Positions 1-26,863 of a stretch of 34,568 nt of DNA are shown in pieces. This DNA comes from Clostridia bacterium (lineage in GTDB: Bacteria > Bacillota > Clostridia > Christensenellales > Borkfalkiaceae), in assembly GCA_017558105.1 (NCBI GenBank), contig JAFYWI010000015.1:1-34568 (forward strand), read 5' to 3'. Numbering within the stretch: the first letter of the stretch is position 1; every line of letters begins with the position of its first letter. The notes below the pieces were generated by a model. The model searched no databases. It had not been told where the DNA came from and saw only the letters and a list, made by a program, of their open reading frames with translations. The position numbers and the translations under genes are program-made.

Positions 1-262
1 ATATTTTATATAATTCTTCTTTTCTATCTGGCGAAACTTCTATTTCTACAAAGCATTTAATAACGTTTTCAAAAACGGAATTATCTATTTCTACGTAATA
101 ACCTTTAATAACGCCGTTTTCTTGTAATGCATCTATTCTGCTTTTTACCGTTGGCGCAGAAATTTCTAATTTACTTGCTATTTCTTTAACGGTAATTTTT
201 GCATCGTCTTGCAAGAACCTTAATATTTTTAAGTCTAAATTATCTACAACTCTATCTTTCAT
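1..262 (-). CDS. Lrp/AsnC-family transcriptional regulator (3' part outside window)
   Basis: The first 87 residues are present; the gene runs off the left edge of the window. It begins MKDRVVDNLDLKILRFLQDD and continues with a winged helix-turn-helix (KITVKEIASKLEISAPTVKS, then RIDALQENGVIKGYYVEID), the standard AsnC-type DNA-binding head. The following FENVIKCFVEIEVSPDRKEE starts the ligand-binding RAM domain. Proteins of this family bind DNA as dimers or octamers and usually sense amino acids; the ligand here cannot be told. The start is supported by an AAAGG-like ribosome site about 9 bases upstream and a TATAAT box at 284-289. It is transcribed away from the structured RNA region at 426-580. 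The family is clear; the specific role is unknown. Confidence 0.88.
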   Translation of the reverse strand, partial: MKDRVVDNLDLKILRFLQDDAKITVKEIASKLEISAPTVKSRIDALQENGVIKGYYVEIDNSVFENVIKCFVEIEVSPDRKEELYKI

Positions 263-390: not shown

Positions 391-419
391 TTTACTTAAT
401 TTTTTTATGGTGTTATAAT
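391..419 (+). promoter_or_regulatory. Sigma-A-type promoter for the 426-580 RNA
   Basis: TTTACT (391-396), 17-base spacer, then TATAAT (414-419) preceded by TG at 411-412, an extended -10. The expected start is the A near 426. No open reading frame of useful length follows, which supports a noncoding transcript. Confidence 0.55.
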
Positions 420-425
420 TTGCTT

Positions 426-580
426 ACTTATTTCGGTAGGTAAATATATGATAACGTTTTATAAATAAAGTAGACTTATTAAGCATTCCAATAAAAGTCT
501 ATTAAGGTGTACAAATTTAAAACGGCTACAATTTAAGTATATTTATTAAGTACCTACCGAGTTGTAGCCGTTTTAGATTA
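426..580 (+). ncRNA. Candidate structured noncoding RNA with pseudoknot-capable pairing
   Basis: Three perfect inverted repeats lie in about 155 bases that hold no gene. Stem 1 pairs TCGGTAGGTA (433-442) with TACCTACCGA (551-560). Stem 2 pairs AAAACGGCTACAA (519-531) with TTGTAGCCGTTTT (562-574) and can extend outward to 514-579. Stem 3 pairs TAGACTT (471-477) with AAGTCTA (495-501). Stems 1 and 2 interleave, because the 3' arm of stem 1 sits in the loop of stem 2 one base before the 3' arm of stem 2. This is a pseudoknot, or two alternative folds. A promoter lies just upstream and the stem 2 hairpin ends in TTTT, so it could also act as a terminator. I do not recognise an RNA family. A six-codon ATG frame at 449-469 is the only reading frame noticed. 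Confidence 0.55.
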
Positions 581-608
581 AAAATTCTATATTCATTATA
601 TAATATAT

Positions 609-645
609 AAAAGAAAAGAGTAACTTAAATAGTTACCCTTTTTTA
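609..645 (-). terminator. Intrinsic terminator after the Cys-rich gene
   Basis: Read on the minus strand, GGGTAACT and AGTTACTC form an 8-bp stem with one G-U pair and a 5-base loop, followed by TTTTCTTTT. It begins directly after the stop codon at 647-649. On the plus strand the wobble becomes an A-C mismatch, so it fits the minus-strand gene better. Confidence 0.65.
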
Positions 646-646
646 T

Positions 647-820
647 TTAGTCTTCTTCCATTTTTATGCCAGTTATTTTAATAATTTTATAGTTTTTGTC
701 TGTTTCTATACATTTACCACAACTATCGCATTTTTTATTAGGGTCTAAATCGCAAAACTCGTCGCATTCCCCACAATCTATACAATCTCTATTATATTTA
801 ACACATTTAATTTTTTCCAT
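647..820 (-). CDS. Small Cys-rich putative metal- or Fe-S-binding protein (57 aa)
   Basis: A 57-residue frame starting MEKIKCVKYNRDCIDCGECD, with eight cysteines at about residues 6, 13, 16, 19, 23, 31, 34 and 37. Residues 13-23 match the ferredoxin spacing CxxCxxCxxxC, and 31-37 form a second CxxCxxC. The two clusters suggest zinc or an iron-sulfur cluster. It is too short for a normal 2[4Fe-4S] ferredoxin and has only a short charged tail. The start is supported by AGGGAAG a few bases upstream, and an intrinsic terminator follows the stop at once, so it looks like a complete single-gene unit. It is divergent from lexA with about 136 bases between. I do not know its function. Confidence 0.75.
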   Translation of the reverse strand: MEKIKCVKYNRDCIDCGECDEFCDLDPNKKCDSCGKCIETDKNYKIIKITGIKMEED

Positions 821-2718: not shown

Positions 2719-3933
2719 TTATAATTCTAAATTTTTTAACGCAATTTTGCAATGTTCGTAAGTTAAGCCACCTTGCAAGTATGCAATATAAGGTGGTTTA
2801 ATTGGCGCATCTGCAGAGAGTTCTATAGAAGAACCTTGAACAAAACAACCTGCTGCCATAATAACTTCATCGTTATAACCAGGCATTGCCCAAGGTAATG
2901 CTAAAACGTGGCTATCTATTGGTGAATTTTTTTGTATACATTGAATAAATTTAATAAGTTTTTCTTTATCTTTAAACATTATAGAAAGTATTATATCGTT
3001 AGGTATTTCTTCGTTAGTTTCTGGCGAAGTTTTATACCCTAATTCCCTTAAAACTTCCCCAAACAATAAAGTTCCTTTAACAGATTGCAATACTGTGTGT
3101 GGGGCTAAAAATAGCCCTTGGTAGAAATATTGGTAGCCACTATAATAAGAACCAACTTCCCCGCTTATAGACGGCGCTGTTAAACGATTTTTAACTAATT
3201 CAACGTATTTTTCATCGCCACAAACGTAACCACCGGTTGGCGCAATGCCACCACCTATATTTTTAATCATAGAACCAGCAAGTAAGTTTACACCCACTTC
3301 GGTTGCTTCGCGCTTGTCCATAAATTCGCCGTAGCAGTTATCTAACATAATACAACCATTAAAGCCTAAATCTTTAACAAATTTAACAATTTCTTCTATT
3401 TTTTCAATAGATAATGCACTTCTCCAAGCGTACCCCCTAGAACGTTGCAAATAAACCATTTTTGGTGAATTATTCAATAAATAATCTTTTATTTTATCTT
3501 TATTAAAATTGCCGTTATTATCTAATTCAATACTATCAAAGGTAACGTTATAATCTTCTAAAGAACCCGTTCCTTTTCCTTTAATTACGTCGTTTAAAGT
3601 ATCATAAGGTGTGCCTGTAATTGAAAGAAATTTATCGTTAGGTCTTAAAACGCCATATAAACATAGTGCTAGTGCGTGTGTTCCAGAAACAATAGTTGGA
3701 GAACAAATTGCACTTTCGCACTTAAAAATATCTGCTATAACTTTATTTAACGTATCTCTGCCCTCATCTCCATAACCATAACCAGTAGTTCCAGAAAAGT
3801 GCCTTAACGCAATTTGGTTTTTCTTAAAAGTGTTTAATACTTTTTCTTGGTTAAAAAGCGCTATATCTTCAAAGTAAGAAAATATTTTATTTAATTTTTT
3901 TTCGCATTTATTTATTAAAGAAACGTCTATCAT
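2719..3933 (-). CDS. ynbB: PLP-dependent methionine gamma-lyase-like protein (YnbB / 'aluminum resistance' family)
   Basis: 404 residues, fold type I PLP enzyme of the methionine gamma-lyase-like family called YnbB in Bacillus and often mislabelled aluminum resistance protein. Visible marks are RHFSGTTGYGYGDEGRDTLN near the N-terminus, SPTIVSGTHALALCLYGVLR, the aspartate region GCIMLDNCYGEF, and SMIKNIGGGIAPTGGYV, whose lysine should bind PLP. The reaction is probably a C-S lyase or related step, but the physiological substrate is not established. It is last in the miaB-mutS-mutL-miaA operon, and its ATG overlaps the miaA stop by 4 bases. In many Firmicutes hfq lies between miaA and this gene; here there is no room for it. 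Confidence 0.9.
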   Translation of the reverse strand: MIDVSLINKCEKKLNKIFSYFEDIALFNQEKVLNTFKKNQIALRHFSGTTGYGYGDEGRDTLNKVIADIFKCESAICSPTIVSGTHALALCLYGVLRPNDKFLSITGTPYDTLNDVIKGKGTGSLEDYNVTFDSIELDNNGNFNKDKIKDYLLNNSPKMVYLQRSRGYAWRSALSIEKIEEIVKFVKDLGFNGCIMLDNCYGEFMDKREATEVGVNLLAGSMIKNIGGGIAPTGGYVCGDEKYVELVKNRLTAPSISGEVGSYYSGYQYFYQGLFLAPHTVLQSVKGTLLFGEVLRELGYKTSPETNEEIPNDIILSIMFKDKEKLIKFIQCIQKNSPIDSHVLALPWAMPGYNDEVIMAAGCFVQGSSIELSADAPIKPPYIAYLQGGLTYEHCKIALKNLEL

Positions 3934-21661: not shown

Positions 21662-21900
21662 ATAAAACGCCCTATAAAAATAGGGCGTTAAAAACGCGGT
21701 ACCACCTAATTTATCTGTTAAAACAGACCTTATTTGTTCTTTAACGGGAACTAACCGTTGCGCATTACTTGGGTTTACCCTTTCCTCGCAAGACTCCAAA
21801 GTGAATAATAATACCATTTAATTAAAAACCTTTCAGCCTATGAGTTTTTATCTCTTTAAAAAACATTGTATTATCTGTCTTTATCAACGCCAATTAAGTT
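21662..21900 (-). promoter_or_regulatory. T-box riboswitch (Phe) controlling pheS-pheT
   Basis: The 13-base T-box core AGGTGGTACCGCG is intact (21695-21707, minus strand), followed at once by a terminator hairpin (AACGCCCTAT pairing with ATAGGGCGTT, 21666-21689) and a T-rich run before the pheS ribosome site. The leader of about 240 bases upstream is the right length for stem I. A TTC triplet followed by A (21803-21805) is a reasonable specifier for phenylalanine, consistent with the gene controlled. Uncharged tRNA(Phe) would stabilise the antiterminator. Specifier placement is by eye and less sure than the T-box core. Confidence 0.93.
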
Positions 21901-24578: not shown

Positions 24579-24604
24579 AAAAAAAACGGCTAAAATTTTA
24601 GCCG
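24579..24604 (-). terminator. Terminator of spoIIA operon, overlapping the sigF stop codon
   Basis: CGGCTAAAATTTTAGCCG (24587-24604) is a perfect palindrome followed on the minus strand by eight T. The sigF stop TAG lies inside the stem, so the last four codons of the gene encode part of the terminator. Confidence 0.85.
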
Positions 24605-26263: not shown

Positions 26264-26339
26264 CGGGGTGTAGCGCAGTTGGTAGCGCACGTGGTTTGGG
26301 ACCATGGGGTCGGGAGTTCGAGTCTCTTCACCCCGACCA
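26264..26339 (+). tRNA. tRNA-Pro (TGG)
   Basis: Acceptor stem CGGGGTG pairs with CACCCCG; anticodon loop TTTGGGA gives TGG; T-arm contains GTTCGAG. Discriminator A and encoded CCA at 26337-26339. First gene of the cluster. Confidence 0.96.
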
Positions 26340-26367
26340 GAATAAAACGCAAAACAAAATGTTTTAA

Positions 26368-26444
26368 GGGCCTTTAGCTCAGTTGGTTAGAGCGGTCGGC
26401 TCATAACCGATTGGTCCGCGGTTCGAGTCCGTGAAGGCCCACCA
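26368..26444 (+). tRNA. tRNA with CAT anticodon (Ile2 or elongator Met)
   Basis: Acceptor GGGCCTT pairs with AAGGCCC; the anticodon region is GGCTCATAACC; CCA is encoded. It lacks the GGG/CCC anticodon-stem pairs of an initiator. The body (CCTTTAGCTCAGTTGG, GGCTCATAACC) resembles what I remember of the Bacillus Ile2 tRNA, whose C34 becomes lysidine; elongator Met remains possible. Confidence 0.93.
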
Positions 26445-26466
26445 AGTTTCTTAAAACTAAATTTTT

Positions 26467-26543
26467 GGCCCGGTAGTACAGATGGTTAGTACGCCAGCCT
26501 GTCACGCTGGAGGTCGAGGGTTCGAGCCCCTTCCGGGTCGCCA
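26467..26543 (+). tRNA. tRNA-Asp (GTC)
   Basis: Acceptor GGCCCGG pairs with CCGGGTC (one G-U); anticodon stem CAGCC..., loop with GTC; discriminator G as expected for Asp; encoded CCA at 26541-26543. Confidence 0.95.
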
Positions 26544-26546
26544 AAA

Positions 26547-26576
26547 GAAAATGCTTGTAGAAATGCAAGCATTTTC
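26547..26576 (+). other. Hairpin between tRNA-Asp and tRNA-Phe
   Basis: GAAAATGCTTG and CAAGCATTTTC form a perfect 11-bp stem with an 8-base loop. It is followed by A rather than T, so it is a weak terminator at best; it could mark a processing site or partial attenuation within the cluster. Confidence 0.5.
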
Positions 26577-26596
26577 AAAAAAATATACTTAGTAAT

Positions 26597-26672
26597 GCCT
26601 CGGTAGCTCAGTAGGTAGAGCAAGGGACTGAAAATCCCTGTGTCGGTGGTTCGATTCCGCCCCGAGGCACCA
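26597..26672 (+). tRNA. tRNA-Phe (GAA)
   Basis: Acceptor GCCTCGG pairs with CCGAGGC; anticodon loop ACTGAAAAT region gives GAA; encoded CCA at 26670-26672. This is the tRNA class sensed by the pheST T-box in the same window. Confidence 0.96.
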
Positions 26673-26693
26673 AAAGTATTTAAGCGAAATTTC

Positions 26694-26769
26694 GCTGGTG
26701 TAGCTCAACTGGCAGAGCAGCTGATTTGTAATCAGCAGGTTGCGGGTTCGATTCCAGTCACCAGCTCCA
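26694..26769 (+). tRNA. tRNA-Thr (TGT)
   Basis: Acceptor GCTGGTG pairs with CACCAGC; anticodon stem GCTGA/TCAGC encloses TTTGTAA, anticodon TGT; encoded CCA at 26767-26769. Confidence 0.96.
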
Positions 26770-26778
26770 ATAGAATTT

Positions 26779-26863
26779 GGGAAGGTTCCCGAGTGGCCAA
26801 AGGGAACAGACTGTAAATCTGTCGTCAGTGACTTCGGTGGTTCGAATCCACCTCTTCCCACCA
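26779..26863 (+). tRNA. tRNA-Tyr (GTA), class II with long variable arm
   Basis: 85 bases. Acceptor GGGAAGG pairs with TCTTCCC (one G-U); anticodon GTA in ACTGTAAAT; a long variable arm (GTCAGTGAC) as expected for bacterial Tyr; encoded CCA at 26861-26863. Confidence 0.96.

What the first reader, a model, noticed from the sequence alone, without database searches (positions are those of the whole stretch)
426..580. Unrecognised structured RNA with two interleaved long stems
A promoter with extended -10 leads into about 155 bases without a gene that hold three perfect inverted repeats of 10, 13 and 7 bp. The 24-base tract 551-574 is complementary, in two adjacent blocks, to two separate upstream segments (433-442 and 519-531). 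This gives either a pseudoknot with stacked helices or a switch between a 5'-3' closing stem and a terminator-like hairpin. The stems are GC-richer than the surrounding sequence. It fits no RNA family I know, and stands alone between an Lrp gene and a Cys-rich gene.
Basis: partly seen in the sequence, partly recalled or inferred. Interest (0 to 1): 0.8.

Follow-up and report, generated by a model that had tools for sequence, protein, structure and literature searches.

The report
Orphan pseudoknot-capable RNA beside lrp
A short stretch between two genes of an uncultured bacterium can fold into two interlocking stems and is probably a small non-coding RNA, but it was seen in one genome only, so its structure and function remain unproven.

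Summary
433-442 pairs with 551-560 (10 bp), 518-531 with 562-575 (14 bp perfect; 18 pairs with one G-U as 514-531/562-579), and 469-477 with 495-503 (9 pairs with G-U). The first two stems interleave. Such a pair arose in 0 of 2000 Markov sequences; fold z = -3.95. No Rfam family matches.

It lies divergently from an AsnC/Lrp-type gene. In six of six loci with this Lrp the best promoter-like site is 138-160 bp from the lrp start; 0 of 2000 Markov sets were as tight. Three loci have an aspartase-like gene behind it; the window and two others do not.

A one-sequence covariance model found no convincing homologue (396 order genomes; 39 genus genomes), so covariation could not be tested.

Best reading: an orphan small RNA whose 5' end clamps the long loop of a terminator-like 3' hairpin. 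Rivals: a replication template-switch scar, a leader that lost its gene, a divergent 6S RNA. No transcript, ligand or target is shown, and knot and simple hairpin are close in estimated energy.

The parts
391..419 (+). promoter-like site TTTACT-17-TATAAT with extended -10 (TG)
   Evidence: best site in all six lrp loci read starts 138-160 bp from the lrp start, as tight in 0 of 2000 Markov sets
426..582 (+). putative non-coding RNA (start inferred from the -10 box; end inferred from the 3' hairpin)
   Evidence: no Rfam match
433..442 (+). arm A, pairs with 551-560
   Evidence: duplex -15.6 kcal/mol
469..503 (+). local hairpin, 9 pairs (G-U included), 17-nt loop
514..531 (+). arm B, pairs with 562-579 (518-531 perfect)
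   Evidence: duplex -22.8 kcal/mol
551..560 (+). arm A', lies in the 30-nt loop of hairpin B/B'
562..579 (+). arm B', 3' side of the terminator-like hairpin
614..642 (-). terminator-like hairpin behind the Cys-rich gene (minus strand); on the plus strand the stem has an A-C mismatch but is followed by six T's
   Evidence: sequence
2..262 (-). AsnC/Lrp-type regulator, cut by the contig end
   Evidence: Pfam HTH_AsnC-type
647..820 (-). 57-aa Cys-rich protein, no Pfam family at E up to 0.01

Best explanation
An orphan small non-coding RNA of about 155-215 nt, transcribed divergently from an Lrp-type regulator gene out of a promoter whose counterpart in three relatives serves an aspartase-like gene. 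While it is being made, the 5' end (433-442) closes on 551-560. When 562-579 emerges it pairs with 514-531, which leaves a 3' hairpin whose 30-nt loop is clamped by the RNA's own 5' end, that is, a pseudoknot. The clamp would hide the 5' end and the 3' hairpin would protect the other end. The hairpin loop at 478-494 and the unpaired 504-513 would be the parts free to pair with other RNAs. Shown: the complementarity, its non-randomness, the kept position of the promoter-like site, the lack of a known family and of convincing homologues in the sets searched. Inferred: transcription, co-existence of the stems, control by Lrp, action by base pairing.
For: Interleaved repeats far beyond chance (for real sequence); stable fold; arms richer in G+C than the rest; the one mismatch in the long DNA repeat (517/576) is a G-U pair in RNA; best promoter-like site at 138-160 bp from the lrp start in six of six lrp loci read, as tight in 0 of 2000 Markov sets; no + strand ORF of 20 codons or more; in folds of growing transcripts A/A' closes at 140 nt, before B' is complete.
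Against: No convincing homologue: at E up to 0.1 R1 found only the window in 396 order genomes (own included) under strict filters. In 39 genus genomes (own included) 9 others match at E up to 1; the best, E 7.9e-4 for one genome, aligns two hairpins but with A and A' not kept. So there is no covariation. The sensitivity of a model from one sequence was not measured. Pseudoknot energy is about -27.9 plus -15.6 before an unknown penalty, against -36.1 for the nested fold. The promoter pattern alone is at chance level, and the positional control does not allow for the common descent of the six loci. No transcript data.
Confidence: 0.5

Rival explanations
1. A replication template-switch scar: 551-579 was made in one or two events as reverse-complement copies of 433-442 and 514-531, perhaps when the aspartase-like gene was lost, and has no function.
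For: 551-579 reads as a patchwork of two nearby inverted copies set side by side; the aspartase-like gene of G010/G006 is missing at this place and has only a 25%-identical match elsewhere in the 85%-complete genome; template switching is proposed to create RNA hairpins (PMC8794818, abstract and start of text seen); no convincing homologues.
Against: No microhomology at the borders and one untemplated G between the two copies (read from the printout); the copied pieces are among the G+C-richer parts of an AT-rich spacer (400 of 20000 random placements), which a blind copy does not explain.
Confidence: 0.22
2. A cis-acting leader or attenuator (riboswitch-like, or with the 6-codon frame 448-468 as leader peptide) whose regulated gene has been lost or moved.
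For: The same A-B-A'-B' layout, with A' in the loop of the B/B' hairpin, occurs in the leader of a queT gene in G063 (L064); an AGGT sits 6 nt before ATG 448 and arm A would cover it (sequence).
Against: No + strand gene follows before lexA at 957, and the Cys-rich gene lies antisense between; the aspartase-like genes of G010, G006 and G008 have short leaders without it (sequences); a 6-codon frame is easily chance.
Confidence: 0.13
3. A very divergent 6S RNA.
For: RF00013 is detected (E up to 1e-3) in 1 of 13 same-genus genomes (own included, own negative) but in 7 of 8 genomes of other families of the order, one of these below the cut-off; length and lone position would fit.
Against: No 6S match at E up to 10 in 300-700; interleaved stems and a strong 3' hairpin are not the 6S plan (recalled); no lrp-like or lexA-like frame among those listed around the 6S of G012 (by eye).
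Confidence: 0.04
4. A DNA-level element: the repeats are protein-binding sites.
For: TACCTACCGA occurs twice here in opposite orientation; it occurs 95 times in 44 genus genomes against 20 for the reversed pattern; in G004 (L160) it lies at a promoter.
Against: 30 of the 95 places were read: 28 lie in stop-free spans of 519 bases or more, 2 (L151, L160) do not, and no shared flanks were seen; the motif is not palindromic. The excess over the reversed pattern is unexplained, perhaps codon use.
Confidence: 0.04

Closest known systems
Orphan trans-acting small RNAs of Firmicutes (general kind, from knowledge)
   Same: intergenic, own promoter-like site, no + strand ORF of 20 codons, terminator-like 3' hairpin, seen in one genome only
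   Different: 3' hairpin loop is 30 nt and complementary to the 5' end; U-tract is short
Pseudoknotted riboswitch leaders such as that of queT (preQ1 class recalled; L064 compared here)
   Same: A-B-A'-B' layout with A' in the loop of the B/B' hairpin
   Different: no gene downstream on the same strand, no recognised aptamer, stems longer
6S RNA (RF00013)
   Same: length, lone non-coding stretch
   Different: no covariance-model match at E up to 10; interleaved stems instead of one long bulged helix (6S plan recalled)
Template-switch hairpins (PMC8794818, abstract and start seen)
   Same: reverse-complement copies of nearby sequence
   Different: no microhomology at the borders; copied pieces G+C-enriched

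Membership tests
Any Rfam 15 family | match at the family's gathering score | tested here: not met
   none in 426-582; at E up to 10 the 10 matches in 300-700 are all below their cut-offs
Trans-acting small RNA | no protein-coding frame | tested here: met
   no + strand frame of 20 codons or more in 300-660; shorter frames exist (448-468)
Trans-acting small RNA | own promoter and transcript | tested here: inconclusive
   promoter-like site in a position kept in six lrp loci; no RNA data
Trans-acting small RNA | intrinsic terminator | tested here: inconclusive
   hairpin 514-579 with 30-nt loop and UUUU; not listed by the scan
Trans-acting small RNA | pairs with target RNAs | not tested
   no target prediction was attempted
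Riboswitch or attenuator leader | regulated gene downstream on the same strand | tested here: not met
   next + strand gene is lexA at 957, with an antisense gene between
Riboswitch or attenuator leader | known aptamer | tested here: not met
   note that Rfam also misses the queT leader of L064
Functional RNA structure | covariation of stems in homologues | tested here: inconclusive
   no convincing homologues found
6S RNA | covariance-model match | tested here: not met
   for this stretch; for the genome
tracrRNA | Cas9 in the genome | tested here: not met
   0 HNH_4 (PF13395) matches in the 85%-complete own genome; the same search found it in 3 of 14 control genomes
Repeated mobile element | further copies in the genome | tested here: not met
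   the only other own-genome match to 380-640 is 38 bases at 85% to its 5' end (query 2-40); exact AAAACGGCTACAA only at B and B'

The most novel reading that the evidence does not exclude
A new class of regulatory RNA in which the transcript's own 5' end threads into the loop of its 3' terminator hairpin. The knot would decide termination or stability and be driven by an Lrp-controlled divergent promoter; other members of the genus would carry unrelated-looking RNAs in the same promoter slot (G017, G032).
Probability: 0.1. Interest if true: 0.65.

Novelty: new member of a known kind. Interest (0 to 1): 0.36.

Why it matters
If real, it is a well-defined, cheaply testable example of an RNA that knots its 5' end into its terminator loop, sitting where relatives keep a metabolic gene beside its regulator. 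If it is a template-switch scar instead, it would be a clean bacterial case of such mutations creating RNA-like structures from nothing. Either answer needs only RNA-seq and a few strains of the same species.

Tried and rejected
Homologues by DNA: 261 bases against 61 genomes (own included) gave matches of 24-38 bases besides self. The G004 match to 427-463 (18 identical letters within it) and the R1 match in G023 lie at the start of a ThiF-like gene (named by eye) read on the other strand. TACCTACCGA as an operator: 95 places in 44 genomes, 20 for the reversed pattern; 28 of the 30 places read lie in long open spans, so rejected, though the excess is unexplained.

AAAACGGCTA as a genome-wide terminator stem: 16 one-mismatch places besides B and B'. 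10 of the 16 were read; one, window 24583-24604, is a palindromic hairpin and in the other nine I saw no inverted partner by eye; coding status was not tested. Rejected as a family.

Phage, plasmid and viral collections: 0 records with a place covering 80% of the query and 0 matches to the 19-base core. lexA relatives in GTDB genomes: 33 loci, best full-length 63% identical, plus a 69-residue fragment (75%) at a contig start with no upstream DNA.

The queT leader of L064 was first taken as a preQ1 control. Rfam does not call it, so its class is recalled only. The stretches of G017 and G032 fold with strong hairpins but showed no interleaved pair in the scan and no match to the model at E up to 10. 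Of the 12 non-self R1 places in the genus, the 8 best were read as alignments: hairpins after AT-rich leaders, most of them terminator-like; not taken as homologues. A run over the window and 56 other loci gave, at E up to 10, only weak matches besides those in the element itself, the best E 0.046.

Literature: three listings; one paper opened (PMC8794818, abstract and start of text). No report of this element was seen in those listings.

Full report
What is there. Arm A 433-442 pairs with A' 551-560 (10 bp). Arm B pairs with B' as 518-531/562-575 (14 bp perfect), extending to 514-531/562-579 with one G-U. A local hairpin lies at 469-477/495-503. The order is A, hairpin, B, A', B', with a single base (G561) between A' and B', so 551-579 is complementary to two separate upstream pieces. 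In 2000 Markov sequences modelled on 263-646 this combination never arose. The MFE of 426-580 is -36.1 kcal/mol, z -3.95, 0 of 200 shuffles as good. Paired arms hold 20 of 48 G+C, the rest of 426-582 21 of 109.

Is it a pseudoknot? Nested folding leaves A in a small local hairpin and A' in the loop of B/B'. Holding A and A' single costs 8.2 kcal/mol (-27.9 against -36.1), and the A/A' duplex is worth -15.6. The knot wins only if its penalty is below about 7.4 kcal/mol, so the energies do not decide. In folds of growing transcripts (60, 80, 95, 110, 125, 140 and 157 nt tried), A/A' first closes at 140 nt (-26.2), before B' is complete, and the full-length nested optimum then opens it for B/B'. 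This favours A/A' forming first and B/B' second, with either a knot or a switch as the outcome. It is inference from nested folds, not a simulation of knotting.

Ends. The -10 box at 414-419 with TG before it would start an RNA near 426. The scan finds 10 promoter-like sites in 1-1000 where 9.5 are expected by chance, so the box alone means little. B/B' has four U's after its G+C part and a 30-nt loop, and is not listed as a terminator by a scan that allows loops of 3-8; the only one listed in 1-1000 is on the minus strand at 642-614. The RNA may end at about 580 or run to about 643.

Neighbourhood. The window is a whole contig of G000 (1,073,107 bases, 85% complete), and the element lies 426 bases from its end. 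The gene at 2-262 is AsnC/Lrp-type. The Cys-rich 57-aa gene beside lexA is found at E up to 1e-3 in 25 of the 29 relatives' lexA loci fetched; further upstream most of these have other genes. In G010 and G006 the order is lrp(-), aspartase-like(+), Cys-rich(-), lexA(+). Only the G010 protein was scanned (Lyase_1); G006 and G008 were named by resemblance to it. The window has the element where G010 and G006 have that gene. G000's best match to the G010 protein is 25% identical, so the ortholog is absent from this incomplete assembly.

The promoter slot. Six of 44 genus genomes have a close relative of this Lrp (own included; E 2e-28 or better). The best promoter-like site within 260 bp of the lrp start begins at 152 bp in the window and at 160, 156, 148, 147 and 138 bp in G010, G006, G032, G017 and G008. 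In 2000 sets of Markov sequences of the six regions, none had its six best sites within such a range and none reached the summed score; singly, G006's score is ordinary (1556 of 2000 as good) and the window's is not (46 of 2000). The control ignores the common descent of the loci. Three of the six have the aspartase-like gene behind the site (G010, G006, G008). G000 has the element. G017 and G032 have stretches without an aspartase-like frame that fold into hairpins; in G032 short open frames overlap the stretch, and in G017 a small frame with its own promoter-like site follows. Control by Lrp is plausible, not shown.

Relatives of the element. Rfam: nothing at gathering score, and nothing near a cut-off at E up to 10. 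DNA search of 61 genomes: 24-38-base matches besides self. A covariance model from the one sequence (R1) found only the window at E up to 0.1 in 396 order genomes under strict filters. In 39 genus genomes at E up to 1 it matched in 9 besides the own one, the best at E 7.9e-4 for one genome. The eight best of these 12 places were read and show hairpins after AT-rich leaders without the A/A' pair. Matches in G004 and G023 share the 5' piece, but it is the start region of a ThiF-like gene (by eye) on the opposite strand. Phages, plasmids and viral contigs gave nothing that covers it. The power of a one-sequence model to find a diverged homologue was not measured. Without homologues, covariation cannot be judged.

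A comparison case. A scan for interleaved repeats with adjacent 3' arms over 121 sequences returned, besides the window, 11 loci with weaker pairs. One is the leader of a queT gene in G063 (Pfam QueT E 1.5e-27), where A' lies in the loop of a hairpin followed by T's just before the start codon. It resembles a preQ1-I leader by recall, though Rfam does not call it. It shows that this layout occurs in a leader with a gene behind it; the window's element has none.

Rivals. A template-switch scar would explain the side-by-side inverted copies and the lack of relatives, and such events are proposed to create RNA hairpins (PMC8794818, abstract and start seen). Against it, the borders show no microhomology, the base between the copies is untemplated, and the copied pieces are G+C-rich (400 of 20000 random placements). 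A leader that lost its gene is possible; a 6-codon frame with an AGGT before it lies at 448-468, but this is easily chance. RF00013 (6S) is not detected in this genome, but the stretch gives no 6S match at E up to 10. No HNH_4 domain was found in the genome, so tracrRNA is unlikely. A DNA-binding motif is not favoured: TACCTACCGA is commoner than its reversed control (95 against 20), but 28 of 30 places read are in long open spans.

Verdict. Observation confirmed; interpretation partly supported. Most likely an orphan small RNA with a 5' end that can clamp its 3' hairpin, at about 0.5; interest moderate because nothing yet shows expression, structure or function.

Noticed in passing
window 647-820 and lexA 957-1550: A 57-aa Cys-rich protein without Pfam family is encoded divergently from lexA; a relative lies beside lexA in 25 of 29 relatives' lexA loci fetched. 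A kept neighbour of lexA of unknown role.
   Followed up: partly
L064, about 2967-3080 (-): Leader of a queT gene in G063 with a preQ1-I-like sequence (class recalled) and an interleaved A-B-A'-B' layout that Rfam does not call even at E up to 10.
   Followed up: partly
L048 and L049, divergent from lrp: Two other genus genomes (G032, G017) have a promoter-like site and strong hairpins but no aspartase-like gene in the same lrp-divergent slot.
   Followed up: partly
G000-G012 and G037-G044: 6S RNA (RF00013, E up to 1e-3) is detected in 1 of 13 same-genus genomes (own included) but in 7 of 8 genomes of other families of the order, one of them below the cut-off.
   Followed up: no
44 genus genomes: TACCTACCGA occurs 95 times against 20 for the same letters reversed; reason unknown.
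   Followed up: partly
window 21678-21896 (-) and 26264-26863 (+): A T-box leader and a run of six tRNA genes.
   Followed up: no
window 24583-24604: A palindromic, two-way terminator-like hairpin CGGCTAAAATTTTAGCCG whose stem shares CGGCTA with arm B.
   Followed up: partly
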